A DNA stretch of 53,362 nt from a virus: the IMG/VR virus record IMGVR_UViG_3300044707_001188, positions 1 to 53,362 of that record; one strand, given 5' to 3'. The notes under the pieces were generated by a model. That model was not told where the DNA came from. It did not search any database and was given only the letters and a program-made list of their open reading frames with translations. The translations under genes and the position numbers were made by a program. This document shows positions 34,974 to 53,362 of the stretch, in pieces. How positions within the stretch are numbered: the stretch's first letter is position 1; each line of letters starts with the position of its first letter.

Positions 34974-37340
34974 TCAGTCGTCCTTCGCCTTGGTCTTGCT
35001 GGTCTTTGTGGAGTCGCCCGACGATTGCTCCAGCGCCTTGAGCCGCTGGTCGAGGGCCTGCAACCTGCGGTCGCTGGCCGCCTGGATCTGGGCCACCCGC
35101 GCCTTGGCGTCGGCGTCGATACGGGCGACTTCCAGCTTGGTGTCGGCTTCGCGGTTGATCTGGATGGCCCGGTTGGCCAGCTCCGCCTGGGCCTTGCGCA
35201 GCGCCTCGCTCAGGCGGTCGATCTCGGCCGCAGCCTCGGAGCGGACCTTGGCCAAGGCCTCCTGCATCCCGGCCTGGCCCTGGGCTTCACCCTCGACCCC
35301 CACCATGCCCGCCTCGGCCTCCAGCTTGGCGGCCCGGGCGTTGATCTCCCGCACCTTGGCCTGCTGCTCGGACAGCGCGGCTCGGGCAGTCTCGCGCTGC
35401 AACTCCATCGCTTCGGCCTGCATCTGCGCCTGCTGCTCGGCTTGCGCCTGCTCATCGGGCGTCATCGGCTTGGAGGTATCGCGGTCCCCGGTCAGCTTGC
35501 GGATCTGATCGGCGATCTCGTCCTTGTTGGGCAGGTCCGAGAACTCCATCGCGATGGTCAGCACACGCAGCGAGATCTCAGGCGGCAAGCGGTTGGCCAG
35601 CTCGCCCAGGCGCTCGAACATGACCTGGCGCATGGTCCCCGCGTAGTCCTGCTCGGCGACAACAAAGTCGCCCATGCTGGCGGTGATGTCGTTCATCCAC
35701 CGCACGCTGCCGTCGGGCTGCACCTCGGGCTGGTTGATACGCACCCACTCCAGCGCGCCCTTGGCGCCGGTCAGGCGGATCACCTTCTCCTGCGTGTACC
35801 ACTGCTCCACCAGGGACAGCTGCTTCTCGCCCTGCACCTGGGTCGCCAGGCGCAGGTTGTCGAACGGCTCGGTGGTGACAACGGAGCCCTGCAATTGCCG
35901 CGCCTCGATGGCCTTGCCCGACACGGCGTTGGTCTGCCGGCCCATGTTTTCGTCGGCGACGCCGCCCGAGCGCTGGATGCCCCGCATCCCAAGCTCCATC
36001 ATCTGGATCTGGCCGGTGGCAGCGTCGGTGTCGCGGCGGATCTCCAGCTTGCGGCCGGCCTTGTAGACCACGACACCGTCGGGCCGGTCAGCCTCGTCGC
36101 GCAGGGTCTCCCAGTCCTCGGTCGCGCCTTCCTCGGCCAGGATCTGGTTGCTGTTCAGCATGAACAGCGCCTTGGACGCGCGCTTGTTGATGTCCTGCTG
36201 GATGTCGCGCACCCGGCGGATGGCGCCGTAAGGCAGCCGGTCGCGGCTACGGCGGTAGCACCAGATCGGCGTCAGAGAAAACCGGTTGTGCCGGTACTGG
36301 CTCGGGCCGCTGCCCAGCAGATGCGACTCTGTGAACACCGCGATGTGCACACGCATCATCAGCTTGTCCACGATCATGCTGCCCAAGCGCCCCAAGGCGT
36401 CGGCCAGCGCACGGTCGGCGGGGTTGAAGATCGCGCCGCGCAGCGGCCCCTCATCGACGATGCGTACCTGGGCGGGCTTGCGGTATTGGCACTCGATCAG
36501 CTTGACCCGTCGGCGCCGCGCATCGGCCAGCTGGCCGACGCCTGCGGCGTAGAGCGTGCCGGTCTTCACATTGCTGAGGTCGTGCGCGGTGTACCAGGTC
36601 TCCTCTTCCCAGCCGTCGGTGGTCAAGTGCGTGCCTTCCTCGACCGCCTGGCGGATGCAGTCGGCACGGTCAGGGAACATCAGAAGCGCCACATCCTCGT
36701 CCACCCAACGCCAGCGGAACAGGTAGCGCGCGTCCGACAAGTCGTGCTCGTAGGCGTTGCTGTCCCACAGCACGTTGCGCCAGTCCTCGTACTTCGAGTA
36801 CAGGATGTCCTGGGTCGGGTCGTCGCGCACCCCGTCGTCCATCCAGCCCACGCCAGCCTTGATGGCGTCCGCGAAGGCGCGAGATCGCAGGAAGGTGACG
36901 CGGTTGATGTCCGAGACGTACTTCAAGACCCGCGTCTTGACATCGGCCAGGTCGACGTCGTCCTCGGTGCGCGGCAGCACGCGCCAGTCCACCCGGGTCC
37001 GCCGCTCGGTGCCGATCAACCAGTCGACCATCGGCGCGATCTCGTTGTAGACCAGGGGCATTTGCCCGCGCTCGCGCAGGACGGCGGCGTCCTCGGGATC
37101 CCACTGCAACGAGTCATAGAAGTCGCAGTCCATCGCCATGTCCAGGCGGTTCAGCGACTGGCGCTCCTTCTCGTAGAAGTACCACTCGAGCAGCTGGCGC
37201 AGCTCGCGCCGGGCCTGCTCCGAGTCCAGCTTGTGCTGGCCAGCCGAGGCTGTCACCACCGCGCTCTGGGGCCGCAGCACCTCGTCCAGCGAGCCCCCGT
37301 CGCGGCGGCGGCGGGAGAACTCCAGCGGCTCAATGGGCAT
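34974..37340 (-). CDS. Portal protein, P22-type
   Basis: 788 residues. It opens MPIEPLEFSRRRRDGG and has helix-rich, Asp/Trp-rich stretches typical of P22-like portals: WDPEDAAVLRERGQMPLVYNE, MVDWLIGTERRTRVDW, VGWMDDGVRDD, IQQDINKRASKALFMLNSNQ-type region and EWVRINQPEVQPDG. The C-terminal 250 residues form a long Glu/Arg/Ala coiled coil (AQAEQQAQMQAEAMELQRE), the barrel extension. It forms the dodecameric DNA gate and terminase dock. The start overlaps the end of the 139-codon gene by 11 bases. Confidence 0.85.
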   Translation of the reverse strand: MPIEPLEFSRRRRDGGSLDEVLRPQSAVVTASAGQHKLDSEQARRELRQLLEWYFYEKERQSLNRLDMAMDCDFYDSLQWDPEDAAVLRERGQMPLVYNEIAPMVDWLIGTERRTRVDWRVLPRTEDDVDLADVKTRVLKYVSDINRVTFLRSRAFADAIKAGVGWMDDGVRDDPTQDILYSKYEDWRNVLWDSNAYEHDLSDARYLFRWRWVDEDVALLMFPDRADCIRQAVEEGTHLTTDGWEEETWYTAHDLSNVKTGTLYAAGVGQLADARRRRVKLIECQYRKPAQVRIVDEGPLRGAIFNPADRALADALGRLGSMIVDKLMMRVHIAVFTESHLLGSGPSQYRHNRFSLTPIWCYRRSRDRLPYGAIRRVRDIQQDINKRASKALFMLNSNQILAEEGATEDWETLRDEADRPDGVVVYKAGRKLEIRRDTDAATGQIQMMELGMRGIQRSGGVADENMGRQTNAVSGKAIEARQLQGSVVTTEPFDNLRLATQVQGEKQLSLVEQWYTQEKVIRLTGAKGALEWVRINQPEVQPDGSVRWMNDITASMGDFVVAEQDYAGTMRQVMFERLGELANRLPPEISLRVLTIAMEFSDLPNKDEIADQIRKLTGDRDTSKPMTPDEQAQAEQQAQMQAEAMELQRETARAALSEQQAKVREINARAAKLEAEAGMVGVEGEAQGQAGMQEALAKVRSEAAAEIDRLSEALRKAQAELANRAIQINREADTKLEVARIDADAKARVAQIQAASDRRLQALDQRLKALEQSSGDSTKTSKTKAKDD

Positions 37341-37749
37341 AGGTCGCGCCCTCGCGCTCGATGCGGATGTCCTGCTGCGCCAGCACCTGCCCGTCGGCGC
37401 GCAGCGTCATCGCCCCGACGCTGCCCGGGTAGAACTCGGCCGGCGGGGCCGAGGGCATCTTCACCAGGTCGGGCAGCCCGTCATGGATGATCCCGGCAAC
37501 CCGCACCCAGTTGGCCCGGCTGGGCTCGATGCCCAGCACTTCGCAGGCCGTGACGCACTGGCGGGCCAAGTAGGCGGGGTCGTCGTAGCGCCAGGCTGAC
37601 GAGTCGCAGACGATGTACCAGGGTGCGCCGGGCCGATGGGCAGGCAGCAGCACCATCGCGCGCTCGTCATTGACCCAGGTGAAGACAACCACCAAGTCAC
37701 CGTGCTGGCGAGTCGCGTAAGCCTTGCGAGGATTGAGGGTTGCGGGCAT
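37330..37749 (-). CDS. Conserved small phage protein upstream of the portal
   Basis: 139 residues from ATG 37747-37749. Composition is mixed alpha/beta, with MPATLNPRKAYATRQHGDLVVVF and a Trp-containing centre (VCDSSAWRYDDPAYLA), then AGIIHDGLPDLVKMPSAPPAEF. I do not recognise the family. It overlaps the portal start by 11 bases, indicating coupled translation, and copy 5 of the 11-mer lies 31 bases upstream. In the undisturbed order it would directly follow the terminase gene. Confidence 0.6.
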   Translation of the reverse strand: MPATLNPRKAYATRQHGDLVVVFTWVNDERAMVLLPAHRPGAPWYIVCDSSAWRYDDPAYLARQCVTACEVLGIEPSRANWVRVAGIIHDGLPDLVKMPSAPPAEFYPGSVGAMTLRADGQVLAQQDIRIEREGATYAH

Positions 37750-37819: not shown

Positions 37820-40800
37820 ATGGATAAGTCGTTGATTATCGTTATTGACCAGTTTTCAGATCGAGTTCTCGATAATAGCAATGTAACACTATTTGATTAT
37901 GGAAAGCTAGAGAAGGTAGCATATATTGATAACTATTACAATGTATACAATGGAAGTTTTTCAGGATACGGGAATTATGACGATCTGCTACTAGTCGAGG
38001 ACTATGGATACGGGTTCTTCCCGGTTTCAAAAGACGGGGTATTGTATTCGTACACGTCAGATCTAGATTTCATTGCTCGACAATCATTCATTGATATATT
38101 TGGGCTAACCGCTTACGCAGACAATTACCTTAGCCTTTCTCGAACAAATCAATCATCAGAACTTTCAGTAAATCATGGGGATTGGGTTGTTGAAGCACTC
38201 TTGCAAACTCTTGATCGACCGCAGTACACCGAAATAATTTGTATCGACGTCGACACCTTGAATGGCGAGTACTCTCATTTTGATGATGTCTTTGATCAAA
38301 CATTAATCTATTTTGATGGATCAACGTTTATCGGATCCAACCTTGAGAAGATATTGACATCTTTTCTTTCCTCGAATGACACTAGATTTAGTATATCTGG
38401 CTCCACACAATACGCTTTAGGAGGCATCAGCCTATCTATCGGAGGCACATTACCAGATATCAATGAGGCAATTTTCTTGGATTTCTTAGAAACTGCAAGA
38501 GTCCCTATATTTCAAGCCGCACCAAATGTCAACCAAGGATTTTATGATTATGCGATGGTGTTTCCAAACGTTATTACGGTTGGCGCATGGAATAAATCAA
38601 ACGCAAACGGTCTCCTCTTGGGATCGGATAGCACAATCGCAACGATAGATATAGTTGCGGATGGTTTGGTTTCCAAGAACGGATGGGGTTGGAACTTTGG
38701 AACATCATTTGCCACCCCAAAAGTAGCAGCCGAGTTTTTGAATATACTTAATGATGCGATTGTTTCATTGAACAATTCGGGGAAAAGCCTCTCGGATATT
38801 GAAACGCCAGATATTGAGGGAATTATTTATTCGAATTTCGTCAATTCCATAATACACGCAATATCGACAGATGTACTAGCAACAATAAATGGAGAACAAA
38901 TTTCGGGCATAAAAGTTCTTACGTCCACAGTCGAACAAAACGGATTTATACCAAAGACGGTAAGCGGCGTAAGTGGGTCAAGTTTTGTGATTTCAAGCGC
39001 ATCGGCGGATGTGCCTCAAGTCAATAGACCGCCGAACGGAAGCGTTACGATTACTGGTAATGCAATCCAAGGTCAGGTCTTGACAGCATCGAATACTCTG
39101 TCGGATGCTGATGGGTTAGGTGTGATCACCTACACGTGGCGAGCGGGCGGCACACCAGTCGGTACCGGGACAACGTACACACTGAGCCACGCTGAGGTCG
39201 GCAAGACAATTACAGTCACAGCCAGCTACATCGACGGCGGCAACACCATGGAGTCGGTCTCAAGTGCTGCCACCGCCACGGTAGCCAATATCGAAGACGC
39301 TCCCGTAATTGTGGCTGGTGATGGCATAGTTACGACAAAAATAGGTTCGGAACAAAATATAGCACAAGGCGTTTTATTACAGCCCGATCAGAAAATCCTA
39401 ATTGTCGGCTACAGCAATAACGGGAAGTACCACGAATTTGCACTTATTCGCTACAACATAGATGGCAGCCTCGATACAAGTTTTGATTTTGATGGAAAGG
39501 TCACGACTGCAATAGGATCAAGTAGGGCAGAGGCTTCAAGCGCTCTACTGCAACCCGATGGAAAGATTTTGTTGGCAGGTGGCAGCGATCAAGAGTTTAC
39601 CCTTGCACGATACAACGACAATGGAGATCTTGACTCGACTTTTGGCAATAGCGGTATAGTCACTATGTCAGTCACGGCGGGGGCCGATATCGGACACAGT
39701 GTTGCACTACAGCCGGATGGAAAAATTCTATTTGCCGGATATAGCCTTAACGGCAACACCAGTGATTACTCCCTTGTACGCCTCAATTCCAACGGCAGCT
39801 TAGACTCTCTTTTTGGCCAAGGCGGCAAGGTTATTACTCCGATTGGGACAGGCGATGATTTCGGATTAAGTACAACGCTTCAGTCTGACGGGAAGATATT
39901 GGTAGCTGGCTATAGTCACAACGGAAGTAACAATGATTTCTCCCTCGCTCGCTACAATACTAATGGGAGCCTCGATACAAGCTTTGATTTTGATGGCAAG
40001 GTCACGATTGCAATTGGGTCAAGTAGAGACGAAGCTCGCGGGATCACGGTGCAGTCGGATGGAAAAATCTTGATGGCTGGATTTTCCTACACTCAGATAA
40101 GTGGGAATTTTGATTTTGCAATCGTCCGCCTTAATCCGAATGGCAGTCTTGATCAGACGTTTGGCGACAAAGGCAAAGTTATTACTTCGATAGGCATCGG
40201 TGATGATATTTCTCGGAGTATCACCCTTCAACCTGATGGCAAAATATTGGTATTGGGCTACTGCTCAAATTCTGAATCCAATGATTTCGCGCTCGCCCGC
40301 TACAACACCGACGGAAGTCTAGATACCACGTTTGATTCAGATGGTATAGTCACGACTTCGATTGGAATTGGTAATGATTTTGGATTGAGCGTTACGGTTC
40401 AATCGAATGGCAAGATATTAGCGGCGGGGTATAGTGAAGATAAATTCGCCCTCGTTCGATATAACTCGGATGGTAGCCTGGATAAGGGATTTGATTCAAT
40501 TGGGGGCACTGGCTTAAATGTGAGCGTCAGGACTTGGAACACTAATTCATCAATGCCAAGTGTTGGCGTTACAATCGGACAAAACACACTTGCGACTGAT
40601 CCATTAGGGCTTGCTAACTTTGTGTCTGCTGTCGACTCTTCTACGTTGGTATCCGCCGCCGTCGCGTCTTCCTCTTCTGTCTACAGTGGCGCATCACAGT
40701 CCGTCACCCTTCAAGATGCTGTCTCCATCCTGAAAATGATCGGTGGTCAATCAGCAGACGCCACACCCGTTTCGCGCTTTCAGTCGCTGGCCGCAGACTT

Positions 40801-41047
40801 CGACGGTTCAGGCACTGTCAGCCTCGCCGACGCCCTTGGGGTGCTGCGGCACGCAGTAGGGCTTCCGGCCCCGACACCGTCCTGGGTCTTCGTCGAAGAA
40901 GGTGACGACGCACTTTCGTCGGTCCTGAGTCCGGGCGTTCCTGTCCCTGTGACCGTCGACGTGACCCCACCCGGTCCCATCGAGGTCAACCTGATCGGAG
41001 TCCTTCGCGGAGACGTGGACGGCAGCTACGGCGTCTACGGCAGTTGA
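37820..41047 (+). CDS. Subtilase (S8) fused to Ig-like, seven delta-60 repeats and dockerin-like segment; probable prophage cargo gene
   Basis: 1075 residues from an ATG with GGAG 6 nt upstream. No signal peptide. Subtilase motifs: IIVID (Asp10), NHG (His119), AAPN (Asn236, oxyanion) and GTSFATP (Ser296). Then a VCBS/Ig-like domain (GQVLTAS, VITYTWRAGGTPVG, GKTITVTASY; about 405-490). Then seven delta-60 repeats with L/V-Q-P/S-D/N-x-K-I-L (about 505-890), the blade number of a seven-bladed propeller. Last comes a dockerin-like pair (LQDAVSILKMIGG; DFDGSGTVSLADALGVLRHA), Ca-binding. It probably acts outside the cell, exported by an unusual route (type I secretion is one option). It is the only plus-strand gene, markedly AT-rich at the 5' end, and ends 12 bases from the terminase stop: a moron, not a virion part by context. 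A fitness role for the lysogen is inference. Confidence 0.8.
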   Translation: MDKSLIIVIDQFSDRVLDNSNVTLFDYGKLEKVAYIDNYYNVYNGSFSGYGNYDDLLLVEDYGYGFFPVSKDGVLYSYTSDLDFIARQSFIDIFGLTAYADNYLSLSRTNQSSELSVNHGDWVVEALLQTLDRPQYTEIICIDVDTLNGEYSHFDDVFDQTLIYFDGSTFIGSNLEKILTSFLSSNDTRFSISGSTQYALGGISLSIGGTLPDINEAIFLDFLETARVPIFQAAPNVNQGFYDYAMVFPNVITVGAWNKSNANGLLLGSDSTIATIDIVADGLVSKNGWGWNFGTSFATPKVAAEFLNILNDAIVSLNNSGKSLSDIETPDIEGIIYSNFVNSIIHAISTDVLATINGEQISGIKVLTSTVEQNGFIPKTVSGVSGSSFVISSASADVPQVNRPPNGSVTITGNAIQGQVLTASNTLSDADGLGVITYTWRAGGTPVGTGTTYTLSHAEVGKTITVTASYIDGGNTMESVSSAATATVANIEDAPVIVAGDGIVTTKIGSEQNIAQGVLLQPDQKILIVGYSNNGKYHEFALIRYNIDGSLDTSFDFDGKVTTAIGSSRAEASSALLQPDGKILLAGGSDQEFTLARYNDNGDLDSTFGNSGIVTMSVTAGADIGHSVALQPDGKILFAGYSLNGNTSDYSLVRLNSNGSLDSLFGQGGKVITPIGTGDDFGLSTTLQSDGKILVAGYSHNGSNNDFSLARYNTNGSLDTSFDFDGKVTIAIGSSRDEARGITVQSDGKILMAGFSYTQISGNFDFAIVRLNPNGSLDQTFGDKGKVITSIGIGDDISRSITLQPDGKILVLGYCSNSESNDFALARYNTDGSLDTTFDSDGIVTTSIGIGNDFGLSVTVQSNGKILAAGYSEDKFALVRYNSDGSLDKGFDSIGGTGLNVSVRTWNTNSSMPSVGVTIGQNTLATDPLGLANFVSAVDSSTLVSAAVASSSSVYSGASQSVTLQDAVSILKMIGGQSADATPVSRFQSLAADFDGSGTVSLADALGVLRHAVGLPAPTPSWVFVEEGDDALSSVLSPGVPVPVTVDVTPPGPIEVNLIGVLRGDVDGSYGVYGS

Positions 41048-41059: not shown

Positions 41060-42358
41060 TCACACAGCCATCGCACTCCCCTTCCTCCGCAGCCCCACCG
41101 CGGTCCCCGACCGAAACCGATCCTCCGCCACCACGCACATCAGCCCGAACGCATCGGCGCCGTGACTCGACCAGTCATGCTCCGGCCCCAGGCCAATGCT
41201 GCGAGCCTCGTCCTTGCGCTCGTGATACCAGCCGAGCGCATCCAGCCCCGCTGAGGTCGTCGCCTCGTTGAACCAGACCGACGTGAACAGCCGCCGCCCG
41301 GCCTCGATGCGCGCTGCAGCTGCGCCGCGGCCTTGGTTGGGCACCACCTCCACTGCATAGCCCGCCTGGCGCAGCGCGGACTCGTAGCTGACGTCGAAAA
41401 CCTTGTCGTGGGTCGACCCGTCGTGCGGCAGCCAGATGTCGGCCTTGCCAGGCGCGTAGCCCTGCGCACGCATCCACGCCAGATGCGCCGCCAGCGGCTG
41501 GCCCACGGCCTCGTAGTAGTTCAGGACGCGGATCTCTCGCCCGACGAACTGCGCCACCCAGATCGTGAAAGCGTCGGCCCTCGCGCCCGTGCCGCCAATG
41601 TCGCAGAACAGGCGCACCGTCATCAGCGGGTCGGCAGCGACCTTGCCGATGCGGCCGGCGGCGCGCGCCTCGGCCAGCACCCGGGCGTAGTACGCACCCT
41701 CGAGCACCGTGGCGTAGCCGCCTTCCCAGATGTGGCTGTACTGCTCAGGCGTGTCGCGCAGGCAGTCCTGGCGCTCCTGCTTCAACACCGCGGGGAAGCG
41801 CGGGTTGTCGGCCCAGTTGGCACGCACCACCACCGCGCCGGTGGGCAGCGTCGCGCCGCGCAGCATCATGTCCACCGCGTCGGTCTTGCGCCGAGGGTTC
41901 CACGAGAACCAAAGCTCGGAGCCCTCCGCCCGCAGCGTCGGCCGCAGCAACTGCAGCGACCTGGCCGACAGCGACTGCGCCTCCTCCACCCAGGCACGCC
42001 GGTAGCCTTCCAGGCTCTTGATGCTCTCGGCGCTGTGGTCCTGCATGCCGATGAAGGTGATCAGGCCATCGCCTGGCGCCTGGATGACCTCGTTGAACAC
42101 CTTGAACCCGTCGGCCTCGCCGATGCCCAGCGCCGAGAGCTTGTCCTCGATCAGCCGCTTGCTCGACTCCTTCAACGTCTTCTGCACCTCGCGGATGCAC
42201 ACCGAGCGCATGCCCTTGTGGCAGATGTGATCCTCGATCAGCAGCTCGGCGAAGAAGTGCGACTTGCCGCTGCCCCGGCCGCCGTAGGCACCCTTGTACC
42301 GGGCTGGGCCCAGCAGTGGACGGAACACCCGCGCAGTGTCAAGCGTCAGGTTTCTCAA
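41060..42358 (-). CDS. Terminase large subunit (PBSX/Terminase_3 type)
   Basis: 432 residues. Walker A GGRGSGKSHF (residues about 26-35), Walker B region RRAWVEEAQSL, and a C-terminal RNase H-like nuclease with FCDIGGTGARADAFTIWV and later SHGADAFGLM. It cuts and pumps DNA into the head with the small subunit. The first codon appears to be TTG overlapping the small-subunit gene by 20 bases, with only a weak ribosome site; no earlier in-frame ATG is near and the first residues (LTLDTARVFRPLLGPARYKG) match family N-termini. The plus-strand cargo gene now ends just beyond its stop. Confidence 0.9.
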   Translation of the reverse strand: MRNLTLDTARVFRPLLGPARYKGAYGGRGSGKSHFFAELLIEDHICHKGMRSVCIREVQKTLKESSKRLIEDKLSALGIGEADGFKVFNEVIQAPGDGLITFIGMQDHSAESIKSLEGYRRAWVEEAQSLSARSLQLLRPTLRAEGSELWFSWNPRRKTDAVDMMLRGATLPTGAVVVRANWADNPRFPAVLKQERQDCLRDTPEQYSHIWEGGYATVLEGAYYARVLAEARAAGRIGKVAADPLMTVRLFCDIGGTGARADAFTIWVAQFVGREIRVLNYYEAVGQPLAAHLAWMRAQGYAPGKADIWLPHDGSTHDKVFDVSYESALRQAGYAVEVVPNQGRGAAAARIEAGRRLFTSVWFNEATTSAGLDALGWYHERKDEARSIGLGPEHDWSSHGADAFGLMCVVAEDRFRSGTAVGLRRKGSAMAV

Positions 42359-42770
42359 GGGTCACCCCCACGTCGATGATGCGACGCGTGACCGAGGTCA
42401 CCGCGCCCGAGTGCTCGACCTTCTGCGGCGCGTTGAAGCCGTGCATGGCGTTCAATTCCTTGACGGCCGAGACGATGTCGCTCGCCCGCTCGGCGTCCCG
42501 TATCACGCCCATCAGAGAACGCACGCTGTCCTCGCGCGACCAAAGCGACCGCTTGGCCAAATCGGCACGGTGCTCGGCAACCCTTGCGATAACCTCAGGC
42601 TTCGCGCTCAACCGGCTGGCCCGCTCCCAAACGGCGGATTCCTTCCAGGTGGTCGATTTCGCATAGGCAGTGCGATAGGCCTCGGCCTGGGATTTACCAC
42701 TCGCCACCAGGAGCGCGAAGGCTTCCTGCTGCGGCGTCAGCGAGCCGGTGTCGTCGTCGGTCTTGTTCAT
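42339..42770 (-). CDS. Terminase small subunit
   Basis: 143 residues from ATG 42768-42770, sharing ATGA with the stop of the upstream HTH gene. An N-terminal helix-turn-helix, LTPQQEAFALLVASGKSQAEAYRTAY, is the usual Terminase_2/P27-type DNA-binding start. This is followed by KPEVIARVAEHRADLAKR and an oligomerising C-terminus. It recognises packaging sites and presents DNA to the large subunit. Confidence 0.85.
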   Translation of the reverse strand: MNKTDDDTGSLTPQQEAFALLVASGKSQAEAYRTAYAKSTTWKESAVWERASRLSAKPEVIARVAEHRADLAKRSLWSREDSVRSLMGVIRDAERASDIVSAVKELNAMHGFNAPQKVEHSGAVTSVTRRIIDVGVTLEKPDA

Positions 42771-43123
42771 CGCGGTTCCTGTCGTCTTGGTTGAGGGTCG
42801 GCACACAGCACGGCGCGATATCGCAGATACCGGCACGGTATGGATGGCCCGCCGCAGGGTGTGGCTTCTATGTGGCCGAGGGTGCGCAGGTAGTGCAGCG
42901 CCCAGCTCACGGTCTTCTGGCTGCGCCCGACCGCACGGACGATCTCCGCGGTGCGGTGCCAGCGCTTCGGGTGCTGGCGCAGATGCTTGAGCACAGCATC
43001 GCTGACGCTGCCAGACTGGATCGCGCCGGGTGGGCGAGGATTCGGGATGGCCTGGCGCAGCGACGGTGCCGACATGGCCACGGGGTAGGAGACCAGTTGC
43101 TGGGTGAGCCAGAGAAGCGTCAT
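42767..43123 (-). CDS. Small winged-helix/HTH DNA-binding protein
   Basis: 118 residues. Residues about 40-95 contain VSDAVLKHLRQHPKRWHRTAEIVRAVGRSQKTVSWALHYLRTLGHIEA, a winged-helix pattern in which TAEIVRAVGRS-x-K-T-V is helix-turn-helix and GHIEATPCGG the wing. The end carries RYLRYRAVLCADP. It overlaps both neighbours by four bases (ATGA), a strongly coupled resolvase-HTH-terminase block. It may regulate packaging or late genes. No ligand-binding domain. Family not named. Confidence 0.7.
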   Translation of the reverse strand: MTLLWLTQQLVSYPVAMSAPSLRQAIPNPRPPGAIQSGSVSDAVLKHLRQHPKRWHRTAEIVRAVGRSQKTVSWALHYLRTLGHIEATPCGGPSIPCRYLRYRAVLCADPQPRRQEPR

Positions 43124-43647
43124 GCTGTCAGCGCTCCGACATCGCCACGGCAGGCAAAGTGCAACAACGCCAGTGCGTCGGCCTCGTTGTCGTCGCCAGG
43201 GTCGAAGCCGAGGCTGTGCATGGCGCTGATGACCTCATCCTTGCCGGCATTGCCGCGCCCGGTAGCCGAGCGCTTGATGGTCGCCACCGGCACGCCCTGA
43301 TAAGGCACACCGACAGATTCGCACCAGGCCGCCAGATGGCCCAGAAAAGCCCCGTAGGCGTGCGCGGCCGCCGTACCCTTATGCGCCCTCACCTCTTCGA
43401 AGAAAACGCCTCCTAGAGGCCCTACGCCCCGCTGAAGCTCGTTCAGCCAGGCCACGAACCTGAGCAGCGGCATACCGCCGCCCTCAAACCGCCCGGGTTT
43501 GAAGCGCTGCGTGCCGGAAATGATCTGCCCAGTGCCGTCGCGAATCGCCCAGCCGGTGTTCTGGCCGAGATCGAGCGCGAGTACGGGGTCGCTGCCGGTA
43601 ATCGTCGATCCGGGCTGCGGCGATGAGGGCTGGTGTTTTCTGGACAT
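43120..43647 (-). CDS. RuvC-like Holliday junction resolvase
   Basis: 175 residues with GGAGG 5-6 nt before the ATG. RNase H-fold catalytic acids: Asp26 in LALDLGQNTGW, Glu84/85 in GVFFEEVRAHKG, and the late acids Asp153-Glu155-Asp157 in DDNEADALALLH; basic IKRSATGRGNAGKDEV between them. Related to RuvC and phage resolvases that trim branched DNA before packaging. It opens the packaging operon that runs to the terminase genes, under the promoter proposed in the AT-rich block upstream. Confidence 0.85.
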   Translation of the reverse strand: MSRKHQPSSPQPGSTITGSDPVLALDLGQNTGWAIRDGTGQIISGTQRFKPGRFEGGGMPLLRFVAWLNELQRGVGPLGGVFFEEVRAHKGTAAAHAYGAFLGHLAAWCESVGVPYQGVPVATIKRSATGRGNAGKDEVISAMHSLGFDPGDDNEADALALLHFACRGDVGALTA

Positions 43648-43773
43648 GCGTCCTCCATGGTTGTCGGGTCAACCTGGAGGAGCGCTGGCACTGCCGGGTC
43701 AGGGCGGTGCGGCTCCCTCACGTCGGGATTCGGCGCCGGTGGCCTCAAGCCGGACCGGCTGCCGAGGAAAACT

Positions 43774-43794
43774 TTCAAAATTTCAGTCATTCAA
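43774..43794 (+). repeat. TTCA triad, direct copy A (iteron-like)
   Basis: Three TTCA cores at 8-bp spacing: TTCAAAAT, TTCAGTCA, TTCAA. 19 of 21 positions match copy B 54 bp away. Confidence 0.65.
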
Positions 43795-43819
43795 CCCCGT
43801 CTACTATTGAGAGGGGGTC

Positions 43820-43848
43820 TCTATAACTTCAATATTTCATTCATTCAA
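43820..43848 (-). promoter_or_regulatory. Sigma70-like promoter for the resolvase-terminase operon
   Basis: On the minus strand TTGAAT, then a 17-base spacer, then TATAGA. The expected start of transcription lies near 43812, about 165 nt before the resolvase ATG. The -35 is part of iteron copy B, so a replication protein bound there could repress it. Confidence 0.5.
43828..43848 (+). repeat. TTCA triad, direct copy B (iteron-like)
   Basis: TTCAATAT, TTCATTCA, TTCAA: three TTCA cores at 8-bp spacing, two mismatches to copy A. Overlaps the proposed promoter. Confidence 0.65.
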
Positions 43849-43923
43849 TATATATCGAAGATCAAGGGCAGAGAGGCCCACCCGTCGCGCGCGAGAGGAT
43901 GTGTGTATATCTATAGACCCCCC

Positions 43924-43944
43924 TTGAAGGTTTGAAGTTTTGAA
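43924..43944 (-). repeat. TTCA triad, inverted copy C (iteron-like)
   Basis: On the plus strand TTGAAGGT, TTGAAGTT, TTGAA; read on the minus strand, TTCAAAAC, TTCAAACC, TTCAA. It matches copy A at 17 of 21 positions and keeps the 8-bp spacing. Confidence 0.65.
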
Positions 43945-44041
43945 GCGAACGTCGGAATCGAAGCAAATCCTTTACCGATCAAAGACTTGCGTGATCGATA
44001 CCGTCGCTTGCGCCTTGAAGCTCGCATTGTGAAGGCATCCA

Positions 44042-46369
44042 TCACCTGCCAACTGCCCTCAGCAACTGGCCTGGTCGCCTGATGGAGGCCACCATTTCTG
44101 CCTCAACCAGGCCCGCCTCGATCAGGGTTTGAAGCACACCATCCCGCTGGCGGCTGTCCATGAACTGCGTGCGACGCGTGAATTCGCTGCGCAACATGCC
44201 GGCATCGCCTGCATCGCGAAGCAACTTGAGCGCCCGCTTGTGATGCTGCTCGATGGGGTTCTCCGACACCCTGGCGTCGGCCTCTCGCATGGCGTACTCG
44301 GCGCAGTGCTTTGCGATCAGCAGCCCCCACTCGGCGTCGTGGTCTTCGATCTGCGGGTTCACGGCGTCGCGTGAGACCGAGCGGATCAGCGCCAGCTTGG
44401 TCGCGTGCTCCTCGATCCGCGCCAGGATGGACGCGTTCGCCGTGCCCCGCGCTCCGCGCAACCGCACCATGATCGAGCGGTCCAGCGCCTGGAACACGGC
44501 GCGCGCCTGTGGCGTCATGCGCACCACGCGCGGATCGACCGTCACCTGGTTGATGGCTCCGCAGTCGGCGAGGTTGCCATTGAGCTTGCCCCCGCCCTCA
44601 TGGATCGCGATCAGTCGGCCGATCACATCCTGCGGCGGGTCGACCACGCCGAACTGCTCATTGCTGTCAGGGAAGTCGTCCTCGCTCTCCACGATCAGAA
44701 ACCGCGCCAGCGAACCGTCGGCCACGTTGGCCGCCTGCAGCGCCTGCCAGAAGTGCAGCGGCGTGGTCGTGCCGTAGACGCACAAGCACGGCTGGTGGAT
44801 CAGCCGGTGCGCGTCGTTGTGCTTTGCACTCGCGTACTCGATGCCGAAGTAGGTCGTGCCGGCCGTCGTGAACAGCTCCGTCATCAAGTCCAGGATCTCG
44901 GTGACGAATCGGGGCGAGCCCTTGCGGTCGGCCGCTGCGGCCAGGAACATCCCGAACTCGTCCAGTTGGAACAGGATCGAGGGCTGGCGCACCATGGCCG
45001 TGAGCAGCCCGGAGCCCGAGGCGATCTTGTTCCCGCCGATGTACTGCGTGAGCCCGGCGCGGCCAAACAGCTCGTTGATCACTACCCGGGCGTGGTTCTT
45101 GCCCGCTCCGCTTTCGGCGATACCGACCATGTAGAGGTTGGACCGCACGTTGGTCTCGGTGCGGTACTTGCGCCCCATCAGCGCGCCGACAGCGCACAGG
45201 CTGGCCGCGAGAGCCAGCACCGGCTGCGGACGCTTGGCCGTGATGACCATCAGATTGATCATGTCGGCGATCACGCCGCCAACGTTGTCCCAGCCTGGGG
45301 GCATGGGTATCCGCGGCGGCGGACCAGGCGGTGGTGTTGACGGCGGTGCCGGTGAAGCAGCCACAGGCGCGACGCCGACGGACCTAGTGGGCAACGAGTC
45401 CAGCAGCGCCCTGGCCGGGTGCTCTTCTGCCACCGGGATCTCGCCGTTGAGCTGAAGGTGAGGGGCGGGTTGCCAGCCTGCGTCGAGCGCAAGCCCGTAG
45501 ATCGTGCCTGCGCCAATGCGCTCAGGCTCGAACCCTGCCCAAGCCTTCGCCGTGACCGCAGGTCGGTTCTTGGCCGACGTGGCGGACCACGCTTCGAACA
45601 GACACGCCCCCTCATCGCCGAGCGCACCCTTGATCGCCATGCCGATACGCACCCAGCTGTCGTAGTCCAGGTCGGCGTTGGCGATGTGGGGCAGCGCCGA
45701 CTCGACCGCTTCGAAGGTGCCCCGCAGTTCGGCCTTCGCGAGGGTCACCCCTGCGTCTCGAGGCCGTGTCGGCAGGCCAACCGGTCGATGCTCCGGCGGC
45801 ACCAGCTCGATGGCCTGCGCAACGAAGGCGCGCACCTGCTCTTGCGTGACCGTTGGCAGATCCGACAGATCCACATCCGCGAGACTGGCCACGGGCCAGT
45901 CATAGGGCTTGCCGGTGTCGGGGTGCAGCGCATAGGCGACGAACTGCTGCCCGACGCCGAGAACCTCGATGGGGTGCTGCTTGAAGCCCCGGAAGGGTTC
46001 TGCAGCCCGGTAGACCAGCAGCCGCTTCGGCGCACGCCCGATGCGCACGGCCGGCGTCTGGCCGAGCTCGCGCATGGCCAGTGCCTGGATCGCGTCGGCG
46101 ACTTCCGGCGAGTGCACCACATCGATGTCGATGCCGATCACATTGCCTGCCGCAATACCGACGCCGGCCTCCGGCCAGCTCGCCCAGACGGAGACCTCGG
46201 ACTCGGTGGTATCGCGCTCGCAGTGCCGCGACCACTGGGCGTAGCCGTGCCAGGCGTTGCGCGAGTAGGCGCCGGGGCTCTTGGCTCCAGGCCGGATGGG
46301 GAGGATACGGTAGCCGCGGTCGACCAGCGTCGGCCCGTACCGGGCCATGAAGTCGGCCTGAACCGTCAC
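44042..46369 (-). CDS. Bifunctional prim-pol / AAA helicase replication protein
   Basis: 775 residues from GTG 46367-46369, preceded by GGAGGAG and sharing GTGA with the stop of the gene upstream. The N-terminal prim-pol domain begins VTVQADFMARYGPTLVDRGY and carries GIDIDVV (Asp81, Asp83), the catalytic D-x-D of archaeo-eukaryotic primase-polymerases. A PriCT-2-like block (YDSWVRIGMAIKGALGDEGA) follows, then a Pro-rich linker and an AAA ATPase: Walker A GIAESGAGKN (about 416-424), Walker B LFQLDEFGM (about 460). This is the YfjI/DUF3987-like arrangement of phage primase-helicases. It would start replication at the neighbouring AT-rich block. A long in-frame upstream extension has no ribosome site and was left out. 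Confidence 0.85.
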   Translation of the reverse strand: MTVQADFMARYGPTLVDRGYRILPIRPGAKSPGAYSRNAWHGYAQWSRHCERDTTESEVSVWASWPEAGVGIAAGNVIGIDIDVVHSPEVADAIQALAMRELGQTPAVRIGRAPKRLLVYRAAEPFRGFKQHPIEVLGVGQQFVAYALHPDTGKPYDWPVASLADVDLSDLPTVTQEQVRAFVAQAIELVPPEHRPVGLPTRPRDAGVTLAKAELRGTFEAVESALPHIANADLDYDSWVRIGMAIKGALGDEGACLFEAWSATSAKNRPAVTAKAWAGFEPERIGAGTIYGLALDAGWQPAPHLQLNGEIPVAEEHPARALLDSLPTRSVGVAPVAASPAPPSTPPPGPPPRIPMPPGWDNVGGVIADMINLMVITAKRPQPVLALAASLCAVGALMGRKYRTETNVRSNLYMVGIAESGAGKNHARVVINELFGRAGLTQYIGGNKIASGSGLLTAMVRQPSILFQLDEFGMFLAAAADRKGSPRFVTEILDLMTELFTTAGTTYFGIEYASAKHNDAHRLIHQPCLCVYGTTTPLHFWQALQAANVADGSLARFLIVESEDDFPDSNEQFGVVDPPQDVIGRLIAIHEGGGKLNGNLADCGAINQVTVDPRVVRMTPQARAVFQALDRSIMVRLRGARGTANASILARIEEHATKLALIRSVSRDAVNPQIEDHDAEWGLLIAKHCAEYAMREADARVSENPIEQHHKRALKLLRDAGDAGMLRSEFTRRTQFMDSRQRDGVLQTLIEAGLVEAEMVASIRRPGQLLRAVGR

Positions 46370-46641
46370 TGGCGCTCCTCCTTGTCGGTCTTCTCGCGGG
46401 TCGGCAACCGGCATCCTGGTCGGACACCGTCGACGAACCCGTCGATGCCCCGGTGGAAGGTGGTCCCTGGGTGCAGGCAGCGGAAATGCGCGATGCGCGA
46501 GCGCTGGAACTCGGGCGTGCAGTCCTCGCAGAACTCGCTCGGGCCTGGTCGCACGCGCACTGTCATCGACTTCCACGCTCGGTACTGGCGGGCGGAGGAA
46601 AAGCACGGCGGCACGCCGTGCGAGCTGGGGATTGCGCTCAT
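46366..46641 (-). CDS. Small Cys-containing phage protein
   Basis: 91 residues from ATG 46639-46641, with GAAAGG about 7 nt upstream. EFCEDCTPEFQRSRIAHFRCLHPG has a C-x-x-C pair and later Cys and His residues, a probable zinc-binding knuckle. The rest is basic. Its stop overlaps the primase GTG, so it is translationally coupled to it. It may be a DNA-binding helper of the primase. Family not recognised. Confidence 0.6.
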   Translation of the reverse strand: MSAIPSSHGVPPCFSSARQYRAWKSMTVRVRPGPSEFCEDCTPEFQRSRIAHFRCLHPGTTFHRGIDGFVDGVRPGCRLPTREKTDKEERQ

Positions 46642-46654
46642 GGCGGGCCTTTCT

Positions 46655-46978
46655 TCAGATCGGGGGGTCATCGGCGTACGCCCTGCGCAGGGTGTCCTGG
46701 TACTCGGTGACGATGACATCAACGAGCCGACCCCACTCCTGCTCCGACCAAGTCGTCAGGTCGGTTCTTGACAGCAACTCGACATAGGCGCCGCCCGCCT
46801 GGGATGCCGCGTCCAAGGCGGCCGCCTCGTGCTTGTTCGGGTTGATCATTCCTTTGAGCCTCGCAGCAATGTCCATGCAGCGCATGGAGCACAACTTCAC
46901 GGTGGGCGCGGCCACCCGGATGAGGTGCGGCGCGAAGCCGAACCCCCGGGCGTCGCGCCGGCAGATAGCGCACAGCAT
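46655..46978 (-). CDS. DUF6511-like small protein
   Basis: 107 residues. It begins MLCAICRRDARGFGFAP with C-x-x-C, then the pair KLCSMRCMDIAARLKG (C-x-x-x-C), giving four cysteines for one zinc site, and ends DTLRRAYADDPPI. I associate this pattern with DUF6511, a small phage protein next to helicases. ATG overlaps the helicase stop by one base (TGATG). Function unknown. Confidence 0.65.
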   Translation of the reverse strand: MLCAICRRDARGFGFAPHLIRVAAPTVKLCSMRCMDIAARLKGMINPNKHEAAALDAASQAGGAYVELLSRTDLTTWSEQEWGRLVDVIVTEYQDTLRRAYADDPPI

Positions 46979-48552
46979 CAGAAACGCGCGCCGACGACCT
47001 TCGTGTACTGGCCGTCTGGGCGCACCTTGATGTGGGTGGGCACGCGCAGTCGGTCGCGCATCGCCAGCGCGTCGACTACGCGGGCAGGTACAGGCATGCC
47101 GGGCGCCCTTGTCGCCCACCAGCCGCGCGCCACCTTGCCGGGGAACCCATCGTGCTCCAGGCAGACGAACTCGCTATGCCGGGCCAACCCGCTGTGGTAG
47201 TCCACGCGCATGCTGGGGGGCTTGCCCGGCTTGCGGTGCAGCGAATAGCTCACACCCGTCACACGTACCGCCTGCGGTTCCGGCGAGCTGACGACCTCTA
47301 GTTCACTGGCCTCGGGATCGATCTTGGGCGGCGCCCTCATGAACACATGGCCGCAGTCCGGGCATTCGCACAACGCCGCGTGAATGATCGAATCGCACTC
47401 GGGGCACACCTTCGTCGGTGCAGCACCACCGCCGTCGCCGGGTTTACCGCGAGGCCTGACGACGTCGATGGGGCCGTGCCTGGCGATGTTGCCCGCGAAG
47501 TCCAGCACCAGGCAGTTCTTCTTGCCCGGTGAGAGGCGACTGCCTCGGCCGACCATCTGCACGTACAAACCTGTGGACTGCGTAGGACGAAGCATCGCGA
47601 TCAAGTCCACCGCCGGGGCGTTGAAGCCGGTGGTCAACACGTTCGCGTTGGTCAGGCACTGGATCTCGCCGGCCTTGAAAGCAGCGATCAGGGCTTCGCG
47701 CTCCGGGCCCGGTGTGTCCCCGACGATGGTCGCGCAGCTCACGCCGCGCGCGAGGATGGCATCGCGGACGTGGTGAGCGTGTCCGACGCCTGCGCAGAAG
47801 ACCAGCCAGCTGCGCCGGCCGTGGCTGTACCGGAAGATCTCGTCGACGGCCGCCTGCGTGATCACGTTGGTGTCGACCGCACGCTCCAACTGCTTGCCGA
47901 TGAAGTCGCCACCGCGCGAGCCGACACCGCGAACATCAAGCTGCGTCTTCGTGCGCTTGGACACCAGCGGGCTGAGGTAGCCACCGTCGATCAGTCTGCG
48001 CACCGAGACGTCGTAGGCCACATCCGTGAACAGCGCGCCCTTCCCCTCGTGGAGCTTGCCCGAGTCAAGCCTGTACGGCGTCGCAGTCAGGCCGATGATC
48101 TTCAGCGAGGAATTGATGCCCTGCAACTGGCCGAGGAAGCGTCGGTACATCGCGCTGTCACTGCGCGGGATGAGGTGAGCCTCATCCACCAGGACCAGAT
48201 CGACGTGACCGATCTCGTCTGCCCGCCGCTGCACAGACTGGATGCCGCAGAACAGGATGCGTGCACGAGACTCGCGCCGGCGCAGCCCGGCCGAGTAGAT
48301 GCCGGCCGGGGCCTCGGGCCACAGTCGCATCAGCTCCGCATGGTTCTGCTGAATCAGCTCGCGCACATGGGTGACGACGAGGATGCGCTGGTCGGGGTGT
48401 TCACGCAGAACGCCCTCGATGAACGAGGCCATCACCAGCGACTTGCCGCCGGCCGTCGGGATGACGATCAGCGGGTTGCCGCTGTGGTGTTCGAAGTAGC
48501 CGTAGAGGCTGTCGATCGCCTCGGCCTGATAGGTTCGCAGCGGGAGCTTCAT
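46978..48552 (-). CDS. DEAD/DEAH-box SF2 helicase with C-terminal zinc finger
   Basis: 524 residues from ATG 48550-48552, sharing ATGA with the nuclease stop. Helicase motifs: RTYQAEAIDSLYGYF (Q-like), IPTAGGKSLVMA (motif I), LVDEAHLI (DEAH, motif II), IGLTATPYR (III), LTNANVLTTGFNAPAVD, and QMVGRGSRL (VI). A C-terminal CPECDSIIHAALCECPDCGHVF is a four-Cys zinc ribbon. Similar helicases of phages assist replication or recombination by unwinding or branch migration. The earlier TTG/ATG positions were rejected for lack of a ribosome site. Confidence 0.85.
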   Translation of the reverse strand: MKLPLRTYQAEAIDSLYGYFEHHSGNPLIVIPTAGGKSLVMASFIEGVLREHPDQRILVVTHVRELIQQNHAELMRLWPEAPAGIYSAGLRRRESRARILFCGIQSVQRRADEIGHVDLVLVDEAHLIPRSDSAMYRRFLGQLQGINSSLKIIGLTATPYRLDSGKLHEGKGALFTDVAYDVSVRRLIDGGYLSPLVSKRTKTQLDVRGVGSRGGDFIGKQLERAVDTNVITQAAVDEIFRYSHGRRSWLVFCAGVGHAHHVRDAILARGVSCATIVGDTPGPEREALIAAFKAGEIQCLTNANVLTTGFNAPAVDLIAMLRPTQSTGLYVQMVGRGSRLSPGKKNCLVLDFAGNIARHGPIDVVRPRGKPGDGGGAAPTKVCPECDSIIHAALCECPDCGHVFMRAPPKIDPEASELEVVSSPEPQAVRVTGVSYSLHRKPGKPPSMRVDYHSGLARHSEFVCLEHDGFPGKVARGWWATRAPGMPVPARVVDALAMRDRLRVPTHIKVRPDGQYTKVVGARF

Positions 48553-49493
48553 GCGCAGACCTCCATTTGCTTGTCGGACCCCTGGTCGCGCCAGCACTGA
48601 CCGTCAGGGAATTCGTACTCCACCCAGTCGTCGCCAGCGTCGATCTGCTTGCCGGGCACCAAAGCCGGCAGGTACAGGTGGCGCTCGCAGCCCTGGCGCT
48701 GCTCTGCCATCGGCAGGGGCCTGTCGTGGCGGTCGCAGTGCCACCCCCCATCGACCGGCGTGGCACTCAGGCAGGTGCGGCAGTTGACCGACGCTGGCTG
48801 CTGCCCGTGGCAGATGTCCCGGTAGTCGCAGAACCGACACTGGAACCAGGTCGGGTCGTCGCTAAGCCTGGGCGCGGGCGCACTGGCCGAGATGACCCGA
48901 GCCGCCTTGTCGAGCAGGCCTTGTGCGAGGGCCGGGTCCGCGGGTACGCGCTCGACGTGGATGTCGTCGGAATCCTTGCACACGGCGACGTACATCGCCC
49001 ACTGCAGGCCCGACAGGTGAAGGTAGGTCTGCATCTGCGCGTGGTGCTGCGGCTTGCTCACCTTGACGCCACGCACCTGCAGGTCGCCGAAGCTCTTGAC
49101 GCCATGCGTCTTGAACTCCACGACGTGCCAGGTGCCAGGGTCCTCGAGCAGGCCGTGCGCGATGGCATCCATCGAGCCGCCGAAATGCCCGCCGTGCGTC
49201 TCGACCCGGAACTGCCGTCCGGTGTCGGGATCGACTTCGAGCACGGTGGCGCCGGTGCGCCGAAGGTTGCGCACCAGGCGCGCCTCCTCCAGTTGTCCGG
49301 TCTCGAACAGACGCAGGATGCGCCCCGGGAACTGCGTGGCCTTGGCCCAGCGAAATGCGTACCAGAGCGCACGCTCGCACTCCGTGCCGATCAAGGACGC
49401 CCCCAAGTGCGGACGCCTGCCGTCGCCGGCGTCGACCTCGTAGTTGCGGAAGATCGCCTCACGGGTCGTGATGGGGTCGATAGCCTCAGTCAT
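48549..49493 (-). CDS. PD-(D/E)XK nuclease, Cas4-like with Fe-S cysteines
   Basis: 314 residues from ATG 49491-49493, overlapping the preceding stop (ATGACTGA). PD-(D/E)XK core: GGSMDAIA, then WHVVEFKTHG (the E-x-K), then QHHAQMQTYLHLSGL. A Cys in GTECERALWY and the later C-x-x-C-x-x-x-x-x-C (QCRFCDYRDICHG) make the four-Cys 4Fe-4S arrangement seen in Cas4 and RecB-like phage exonucleases. A further Cys/His cluster (NCRTC, HCDRH) may be a zinc finger. It should process DNA ends for recombination with the Sak4-like ATPase. Confidence 0.8.
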   Translation of the reverse strand: MTEAIDPITTREAIFRNYEVDAGDGRRPHLGASLIGTECERALWYAFRWAKATQFPGRILRLFETGQLEEARLVRNLRRTGATVLEVDPDTGRQFRVETHGGHFGGSMDAIAHGLLEDPGTWHVVEFKTHGVKSFGDLQVRGVKVSKPQHHAQMQTYLHLSGLQWAMYVAVCKDSDDIHVERVPADPALAQGLLDKAARVISASAPAPRLSDDPTWFQCRFCDYRDICHGQQPASVNCRTCLSATPVDGGWHCDRHDRPLPMAEQRQGCERHLYLPALVPGKQIDAGDDWVEYEFPDGQCWRDQGSDKQMEVCA

Positions 49494-49869: not shown

Positions 49870-49881
49870 GTGCCACCCCCG

Positions 49882-50403: not shown

Positions 50404-50429
50404 GTGAAGATCCTTGTAGATGGTGTCGA

Positions 50430-51319: not shown

Positions 51320-51321
51320 GG

Positions 51322-51696: not shown

Positions 51697-51704
51697 AAGA
51701 CACC
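51677..51704 (-). promoter_or_regulatory. Hairpin at the start of the HTH gene
   Basis: GTGTC TTTT GACAC is a 5-bp perfect stem beside the GGAGG ribosome site, with the TTG start in its loop-proximal half. It could be a translational switch or an operator half-site for the encoded protein. Confidence 0.35.
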
Positions 51705-51715
51705 TCCGAATCACA

Positions 51716-52126: not shown

Positions 52127-53362
52127 TCAGGGCTTGGACTGGTCTGGCGGCCGGCTTTCCGGCGTAACTGTGCCTGACTCACAGTACCGGCCCCAGTCTT
52201 CCATCAGCTCCCGCCGCTTGTCCAGCATGTCCCCCCGACGGTAGGCTGCTTCAACCGCATTGCCGACCGCGTGCGCCAGCGCCAGCTCGGCTGCGGCGTG
52301 AGGATGGTTCGTCGCCTCGGCGGCCCAGTCCCTGAACGAGGAGCGGAAGCCATGCGGCACGGCTGTGAGCTTCATGCGCCGCATCACAGCCGCCAGGGTC
52401 ATGTCCGAGAGCTTGACCCCCTTGAACGGCGAAGGGAAGACGTACCTCTCCTCGCCCCTGGGGAGAGCCTGGAGCAACTCGAGGGCAGCGCTCGACAGCG
52501 GCACCCGGTGTTCGCGCCTCATCTTCATGCGCTCACCCGGAACGGTCCACAGTCGCTGGTCCAAGTCAACCTCGTCCCAGATCATGCCGCGAACCTCCCC
52601 GCTGCGCGCTGCCGTCAGGATCGCGAACTCCAGTGCCCAGGCTGCGATACCCGGACGCAGTCGCAGGTCGACCATGAACTTCGGCACCTGGCGCCAGGGG
52701 ACGGCCTCATGGTGCTTGACCGGCGCGACCTTCGACGGCTTGGGGAAGATCTTGTCCAAGGCCCCGACCCAGCGCGCAGGGTTCAAGCGGTCGCGCTCCG
52801 CGAGCGCATCGGCGGCACTGATCACACGTTCGATCCGCTCGCGAACGCGCGTGGCCGTCTCGGTCTTCGTCGTCCAGATCGGCTTCAGCACCTCGACGAT
52901 GTGCGCCGTGCGGATGTCACCGACCGCCAGCTTGCCGATGATTGGGCTGGCATAGGTGGCCAGCGAGTTGGTCCAGATCTGAACCTGCCTCGGATGCGAC
53001 CACTCCGAAGCCTGCGATTCGATGTAGGTCTTGGATGCTTCGTCGAAGGTCACCGCCGCAGCGGCTTCGGTCGCGCGAGCGGCCGCTTCAGCACGCCTTG
53101 CAGCTATCGGATCTTCTCCTGCTGATGCCTTACGGCGCAGTTCCCTGGCGCTCTCGCGAGCCTCGGCAAGCCCTACCGCGGGGAATGATCCCAAGCCCAC
53201 ATCGCGGCGCTTGCTGTTGACCGAGATCCGCGCAATCCACGAGCGCGACCCGGTCGCACCGACGACAAGATGAAGCCCGGGGGCTCCTCCGACAGCGTGC
53301 ATCCCAGGCTCACGCAGCCTGCTCACGGCCATCGCGCTGAGCTCACGTGCGATCTTCGGCAT
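52127..53362 (-). CDS. Tyrosine integrase, P4-type
   Basis: 411 residues, complete; the ATG is the last codon of the window. N-terminal DUF4102-like arm-binding domain (VGLGSFPAVGLAEARESARELRRK), SAM-like core-binding domain, then the catalytic domain: Arg253 (TAARSGEVRG), His337-x-x-Arg340 (PHGFRSSFRDW), His364 (LAHAVGN) and Tyr374 (AAYRRGD). All five catalytic residues are present, so it is predicted active. P4-type integrases usually insert at tRNA genes, with the attachment site beside the 5' end; that would lie just outside the window. Confidence 0.9.
   Translation of the reverse strand: MPKIARELSAMAVSRLREPGMHAVGGAPGLHLVVGATGSRSWIARISVNSKRRDVGLGSFPAVGLAEARESARELRRKASAGEDPIAARRAEAAARATEAAAAVTFDEASKTYIESQASEWSHPRQVQIWTNSLATYASPIIGKLAVGDIRTAHIVEVLKPIWTTKTETATRVRERIERVISAADALAERDRLNPARWVGALDKIFPKPSKVAPVKHHEAVPWRQVPKFMVDLRLRPGIAAWALEFAILTAARSGEVRGMIWDEVDLDQRLWTVPGERMKMRREHRVPLSSAALELLQALPRGEERYVFPSPFKGVKLSDMTLAAVMRRMKLTAVPHGFRSSFRDWAAEATNHPHAAAELALAHAVGNAVEAAYRRGDMLDKRRELMEDWGRYCESGTVTPESRPPDQSKP

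What the first reader, a model, noticed from the sequence alone, without database searches (positions are those of the whole stretch)
37820..41047. AT-rich subtilase-propeller cargo gene on the opposite strand
The only plus-strand gene splits terminase from the portal block. It keeps a complete Asp-His-Asn-Ser set, lacks a signal peptide and carries seven delta-60 repeats plus a Ca-binding dockerin-like end. Its base composition is foreign. A secreted protease or surface protein could benefit the lysogen.
Basis: partly seen in the sequence, partly recalled or inferred. Interest (0 to 1): 0.7.

Follow-up and report, generated by a model that had tools for sequence, protein, structure and literature searches.

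The report
Swappable secreted-protein gene in temperate phage
A bacterial virus that can sleep in its host's chromosome carries an extra gene for a large protease-like protein ending in the same tail module that likely hosts put on proteins encoded beside a type I secretion pump, so the virus probably makes its host export a new extracellular protein whose front part is swapped between related viruses.

Summary
An intact plus-strand gene (37820-41047, 1075 aa) lies between terL and the portal block of a temperate podovirus: subtilase-like domain, Ig-like region, seven delta-60 repeats, dockerin-like end. Only its front is AT-rich. Relatives show a cargo site: five have a short empty gap there, three (window, L002, provirus in G845) carry a cargo gene, one (L039) keeps a C-terminal scar. 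Window and L002 flanks are ~90% identical in DNA, but homology stops at 37794 and resumes at 40681, inside the C-terminal domain. That domain is under purifying selection (dN/dS 0.08) and recurs about 10-20 times in some host-type genomes; in two genomes of the provirus host genus such a gene sits directly beside a type I secretion operon. None of 17 such proteins has a Sec-like start, and no cohesin was found. Best reading: a lysogenic-conversion gene whose product leaves through the host's type I exporter by this domain, with exchangeable front part. Secretion, proteolysis and benefit are inferred, not shown; structure prediction failed.

The parts
37820..41047 (+). cargo gene, 1075 aa: subtilase-like domain, Ig-like region, seven delta-60 repeats, C-terminal domain
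37820..38986 (+). subtilase-like N-terminal domain (aa 1-389), motifs Asp10, His119, Asn236, Ser296; 39.5% GC
   Evidence: Pfam S8 E=3.3e-4 sub-threshold; PDB 1q5p E=0.28; motif positions; GC
38987..39319 (+). Ig-like region (aa 390-500), overlapping a weak ZirU-family match at aa 408-487
   Evidence: NCBIfam NF040485 E=3e-4, far below its cut-off
39320..40504 (+). seven delta-60 / DUF5122 repeats, predicted seven-bladed propeller (aa 501-895)
40505..41044 (+). C-terminal export-type domain: short beta-rich lead-in (aa 896-956) and dockerin-like core (aa 957-1075)
   Evidence: shared with L002, L201 and many proteins of G001, G002, G845; dN/dS 0.08 over the last 121 codons
37780..37794 (+). 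upstream edge of the cargo: conserved TGCCATGCTTG(GGGC), last bases shared with sister phage L002
40681..41047 (+). DNA homology with L002 resumes here, inside the C-terminal domain, and runs on through terL
41060..42358 (-). terminase large subunit, one edge of the cargo site
   Evidence: Pfam Terminase_3 E=7.6e-23
37330..37749 (-). 139-aa conserved gene between cargo and portal, other edge of the site
   Evidence: 94% in L002; 57-72% in L106-L109 and G861
34974..37340 (-). P22-type portal protein
   Evidence: PF16510 E=2.6e-152
52127..53362 (-). integrase (phrog_1), reaches the window end
   Evidence: homologue sits beside tRNA-Ser in G845

Best explanation
The gene is a lysogenic-conversion (moron-type) cargo in a short gap between terL and the next head gene of a temperate podovirus whose lineage infects a high-GC betaproteobacterial genus. 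Its product is a modular extracellular protein: a subtilase-like head, an Ig-like spacer, a seven-repeat delta-60 propeller and a C-terminal Ca-binding, dockerin-like domain. That C-terminal domain is of the kind that host-type genomes carry on about ten of their own proteins, some encoded directly beside a type I secretion operon (outer-membrane channel, ABC exporter, HlyD). Proposed steps: (1) integration into the host (shown for a relative in G845); (2) expression from the cargo's own strand, independent of the late operon (inferred from orientation); (3) recognition of the C-terminal domain by the host exporter and one-step export without a signal peptide (inferred); (4) Ca-driven folding outside, then protease or binding activity at the surface or in the medium (inferred). 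The conserved C-terminal end plus the phage flanks let the front part be replaced by recombination while the export end is kept (replacement shown by homology breaks and synonymous divergence; that these stretches serve as crossover points is inferred).
For: Exchange: window and L002 are 90-91% identical over both flanks, with homology breaking at 37794 and resuming at 40681; L201 flanks are 82-85% identical with a third, diverged cargo; L002 and L201 cargo fronts are only 36% identical in protein. Synonymous divergence of the C-terminal 121 codons (dS 0.69) and of the 60 before them (2.4) exceeds that of flanking terL (0.29) and the 139-aa gene (0.24), with dN/dS 0.08 in the core. Empty sites: L106-L109 and the G861 provirus. 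Exporter link: in G001:C9 the order is OEP, ABC exporter, HlyD, C-domain cyclophilin, then a convergent C-domain RTX/metallopeptidase; G845:C176 keeps OEP-ABC-HlyD-C-domain with 77-91% identity of the secretion proteins. C-domain: 11 hits in G001, 9 in G845, 21 in G002. No Sec-like start in 17 C-domain proteins, while the OEP control shows one. Host: the provirus in G845, which has both C-domain genes and exporter, carries cargo; the provirus in G861, with no C-domain hit and no close exporter hit, has none.
Against: No secretion or protease data. The S8 score is just under Pfam's cut-off and the D10-H119 spacing is long for a subtilisin. The same exporter exists in G828 without any C-domain gene found, so it is not exclusive to these substrates. 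Chlorobiaceae rich in the domain lack a close copy of this exporter and must use another one. RTX repeats are absent from the window protein. No clear promoter just upstream of the ATG. The host comparison rests on one provirus each way. Both AlphaFold models are unusable.
Confidence: 0.62

Rival explanations
1. The C-terminal module is a true dockerin that docks the protein onto a cohesin scaffold at the cell surface, after export by some other route.
For: Profile similarity to solved dockerins (best E=1.1e-4) and weak Pfam Dockerin_1 hits in 15 of 21 members.
Against: No cohesin (PF00963) in any of 10 genomes with the domain; only one contiguous Ca loop, not two; almost always at the extreme C-terminus; Sec-like starts absent.
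Confidence: 0.08
2. The gene encodes a virion protein (decoration or tail-associated enzyme).
For: It lies in the structural block, and the one phage hit is a tail-fibre protein with delta-60-like similarity (22% identity).
Against: Opposite strand to the head genes, absent from the same site in five relatives, no homologue of the C-domain in 50,697 phage records, and the C-domain belongs to host-type proteins.
Confidence: 0.08
3. A recent, functionless capture of a host gene.
For: AT-rich front part, patchy presence, and only a remnant of the C-domain in L039.
Against: Intact long frames in three relatives, seven delta-60 repeats in each, and strong purifying selection at the C-terminus.
Confidence: 0.07
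4. The product is exported by a type I system, but the C-terminal domain is an anchor or folding module, and the exporter reads another signal.
For: Linkage to type I exporters does not by itself show what the exporter reads; several relatives carry RTX repeats as well.
Against: In the window protein nothing follows the domain and no RTX repeats are found, so the domain is the only candidate C-terminal signal.
Confidence: 0.15

Closest known systems
RTX / type I secretion substrates (serralysin-like proteases, large adhesins)
   Same: no N-terminal signal, uncleaved C-terminal end as the candidate signal, Ca-binding, proteolytic head; relatives with the same end include an RTX protein with a metallopeptidase match encoded beside the exporter
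   Different: the window protein has no RTX nonapeptides; its end is a dockerin-like domain not modelled in Pfam or NCBIfam
Peptidase S8 (subtilase)
   Same: Asp-His-Asn-Ser motif order, GTS-ATP serine motif
   Different: sub-threshold Pfam score; long Asp-His spacing; no confirmed fold
delta-60 repeat / DUF5122 proteins (TIGR02608, PF17164)
   Same: seven repeats scoring far above cut-off
   Different: in a phage genome, joined to a subtilase-like head and to the C-terminal domain
Type I dockerin (PF00404)
   Same: one loop of the dockerin pattern and its flanking helices by sequence
   Different: second loop appears split between the two ends of the domain; no cohesin in these genomes
Phage morons / lysogenic conversion genes
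   Same: extra gene in opposite orientation, foreign composition in part, absent from close relatives
   Different: keeps a host-type C-terminal end while the front part is replaced between relatives

Membership tests
Peptidase S8 subtilase | catalytic Asp, His, Ser and oxyanion Asn motifs in order | tested here: met
   D10, H119, N236, S296; the Asp assignment is by motif only
Peptidase S8 subtilase | score above Pfam gathering cut-off | tested here: not met
   20.5 against 21.8 bits; hence called subtilase-like
Peptidase S8 subtilase | subtilisin fold | tested here: inconclusive
   AlphaFold mean pLDDT 31
delta-60 / DUF5122 | repeats above curated cut-offs | tested here: met
   417 bits against 76.5; 271 against 27; seven stretches
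Type I dockerin | two tandem Ca-binding F-hand repeats | tested here: not met
   one contiguous loop; other half-loops lie at the two ends; not filed as a dockerin
Type I dockerin | cohesin partner in the host | tested here: not met
   no PF00963 in 10 genomes; control genome positive
Type I secretion substrate | no N-terminal Sec signal | tested here: met
   crude hydrophobicity test with an OEP control
Type I secretion substrate | genetic linkage of the C-terminal module to an ABC-HlyD-OMP operon | tested here: met
   G001:C9 and G845:C176; the linkage is for relatives of the module, not for the phage gene itself
Type I secretion substrate | RTX nonapeptide repeats (common, not universal) | tested here: not met
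   no HemolysinCabind hit in the window protein
Type I secretion substrate | exported through the exporter | not testable with these tools
   needs an experiment
Moron / lysogenic conversion gene | extra gene absent from the site in close relatives | tested here: met
   L106-L109 and the G861 provirus
Moron / lysogenic conversion gene | temperate phage | tested here: met
   integrase; relative integrated beside tRNA-Ser with host genes on the same contig
Moron / lysogenic conversion gene | own promoter and terminator | tested here: inconclusive
   simple sigma-70/terminator scan found nothing convincing at the gene's ends
Moron / lysogenic conversion gene | changes the lysogen's phenotype | not testable with these tools
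   needs a lysogen

The most novel reading that the evidence does not exclude
The C-terminal domain is an undescribed, circularly permuted dockerin-like module (its first Ca loop split between GDVDGS at the C-terminus and VTLQDA at the N-terminal side) that serves as a portable type I export tag, and this phage lineage uses it as a fixed plug behind which new payloads are exchanged, matching the exporter of its hosts.
Probability: 0.35. Interest if true: 0.75.

Novelty: new variant of a known kind. Interest (0 to 1): 0.6.

Why it matters
Phages are known to give hosts secreted proteins, but here the sequence shows a site where the front of the protein is replaced while a host-type C-terminal end is kept. 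If that end is an export tag, it gives a handle on a whole unannotated set of secreted proteins in betaproteobacteria and green sulfur bacteria, a testable exporter for them, and a case in which a phage's cargo depends on its host having the right secretion pump.

Tried and rejected
Structure: AlphaFold2 of the C-terminal domain (3 sequences, pLDDT 44) and of the N-terminal domain alone (pLDDT 31) were too poor to use, so no fold search was run. A viral scan and an 11-genome search for relatives of the N-terminal domain alone found none, so its donor is unknown. Phage and plasmid collections hold no relative of the C-terminal domain. Cohesin partner: none. Anti-phage defence families: none. 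Literature: no held paper mentions delta-60 repeats; searches for phage-encoded type I substrates and for permuted dockerins gave no direct precedent. The Chlorobiaceae locus L010 was first taken for a close full-length relative, but the C-domain piece there is a broken fragment outside the delta-60 frame. A strict one-to-one link between this exporter and C-domain genes was considered and rejected because of G828.

Full report
Observation. The gene at 37820-41047 (+) is intact, 1075 codons, with a GGAG just before the ATG. On its two sides lie minus-strand phage genes: terL, and a 139-aa gene followed by a P22-type portal. Seven delta-60 repeats score 417 bits. The N-terminal 389 residues carry Asp10, His119, Asn236 and Ser296 in subtilase order and give a Peptidase_S8 hit just under the Pfam cut-off, so I call it subtilase-like. 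GC runs 39.5% in the subtilase part, 45.5% in the delta-60 part and 63.3% in the last 119 codons, against 68.0% in the rest of the window. The foreign composition is therefore confined to the front part.

The phage. The window is an IMG/VR virus record. It encodes an integrase, recombination and primase-polymerase genes, terminase, P22-type portal, head genes, endolysin and spanin. A relative is integrated in genome G845: contig C173 matches window 42218-53362 at 80-86% and continues past the integrase into a tRNA-Ser gene and host genes (one of them a seryl-tRNA synthetase by eye). Contig C17 of the same genome carries the portal-cargo-terL part at 82-85%. G845 is in the same genus as G001, an uncultured betaproteobacterium MAG. 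So the phage lineage is temperate and its host range includes that genus; that the window phage itself uses this genus is an inference.

A cargo site. In L106, L107, L108, L109 and a provirus in G861 the gap between terL and the 139-aa gene is short (about 70 to 250 bases) and holds no gene. In the aligned empty sites the terL stop is followed within about 15-30 bases by a conserved CAAGCATGGCA (one base differs in L107); in the occupied phages the same motif marks the cargo's upstream edge. Window, L002 and the G845 provirus carry a cargo gene there. L039, whose terL is 66% identical, keeps only about 45 codons of the C-terminal domain beside terL. In G845 a transposase-like frame lies between cargo and the 139-aa gene.

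Exchange of the front part. Window and L002 are 90-91% identical in DNA on both sides; homology stops at 37794, just upstream of the ATG, and resumes at 40681, inside the C-terminal domain. Against the window, the other two cargo proteins share 72-75% identity over the last 177-179 residues but only 38-40% over the delta-60 parts, and the subtilase head is found in the window alone. Synonymous divergence between window and L002 is 0.29 in terL, 0.24 in the 139-aa gene, 0.69 in the last 121 codons of the cargo and 2.4 in the 60 codons before them, while dN/dS in the last 121 codons is 0.08. The cargo copies therefore parted earlier than their flanks, which means replacement by recombination, and the C-terminal end is under purifying selection. 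That recombination uses the C-terminal coding stretch as one crossover region is my inference.

The C-terminal domain. An alignment of 21 examples has conserved positions forming one full 12-residue Ca loop (DFDGSGTVSLAD) and two half loops: VTLQDA at the N-terminal side and GDVDGS at the very end. These halves read as one dockerin loop cut in two, as if the domain were circularly permuted; this is a sequence inference, and the structure prediction failed. No Pfam or NCBIfam model covers it; the nearest are weak Dockerin_1 hits and solved dockerins (E=1.1e-4). It gives 11 hits in G001, 9 in G845, 21 in the Chlorobiaceae MAG G002 and hits in several other genomes of that phylum, but only 2 of 300 sampled genomes of the order (one of them weak) and 2 of 81 of the genus have it. 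Viral contigs gave only L002 and the L039 scar.

Exporter. In G001:C9 an outer-membrane channel, an ABC exporter and HlyD are followed by a C-domain cyclophilin and a convergent C-domain RTX protein with a metallopeptidase match. G845:C176 has the same order, with secretion proteins 77-91% identical. G845 and G828 hold the only copies near 90% identity among the genus genomes compared; G828 has no C-domain gene found, so the exporter is not restricted to these substrates. G352 and G668, both with C-domain genes and outside the genus, hold the next group of hits at about 45% identity, after one 54% copy in G813 without C-domain. None of 17 C-domain proteins shows a Sec-like start by a crude hydrophobicity measure, while the OEP control does. 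A published review states that RTX proteins carry an uncleaved C-terminal signal read by the type I exporter (PMC3034196). Cohesin is absent from all ten C-domain genomes tested.

Host comparison. G845 (C-domain genes, exporter) has a provirus with cargo; G861 (no C-domain hit, no close exporter hit) has a provirus with an empty site. This is one case each way and only suggestive.

Conclusion. The best-supported reading is a lysogenic-conversion gene encoding a modular extracellular protein that leaves through a host type I exporter by its C-terminal domain, with an exchangeable front. Shown: the site, the exchange, the shared domain, its selection, its linkage to exporters in host-type genomes, and temperateness of the lineage. 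Inferred: export, its signal, proteolysis, and benefit.

Noticed in passing
32-14851 (-): A 4939-aa ORF with LPD38, Strawberry-notch-type helicase, ddrB-ParB and RadC-like domains: a giant polyvalent protein.
   Followed up: partly
24971-29602 (-): A 1543-aa ORF with no PHROG or Pfam match at the thresholds used.
   Followed up: partly
14882-17389 (-): An 835-aa ORF whose only match is a GspD-like N0 domain near its C-terminus.
   Followed up: no
18500-20000: A second dip in GC (about 59-60%) over a tail-fibre-like gene at 18904-20823.
   Followed up: no
L201:4016-5002 (-): Transposase-like frame between the cargo gene and the 139-aa gene in the G845 provirus; family judged by eye only.
   Followed up: no
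L010:3744-6086: Chlorobiaceae protein joining a serralysin-like metallopeptidase motif, RTX-like repeats and delta-60 repeats in one frame.
   Followed up: no
L128:8759-10915 (-): Cyclophilin-type peptidyl-prolyl isomerase carrying the C-terminal domain, encoded directly beside the type I exporter; a possible folding helper for exported proteins.
   Followed up: no
G657, G751, G630: Weaker matches to the C-terminal domain in other genomes of the Chlorobiaceae MAG's phylum, mostly covering the second half, often several per genome.
   Followed up: no
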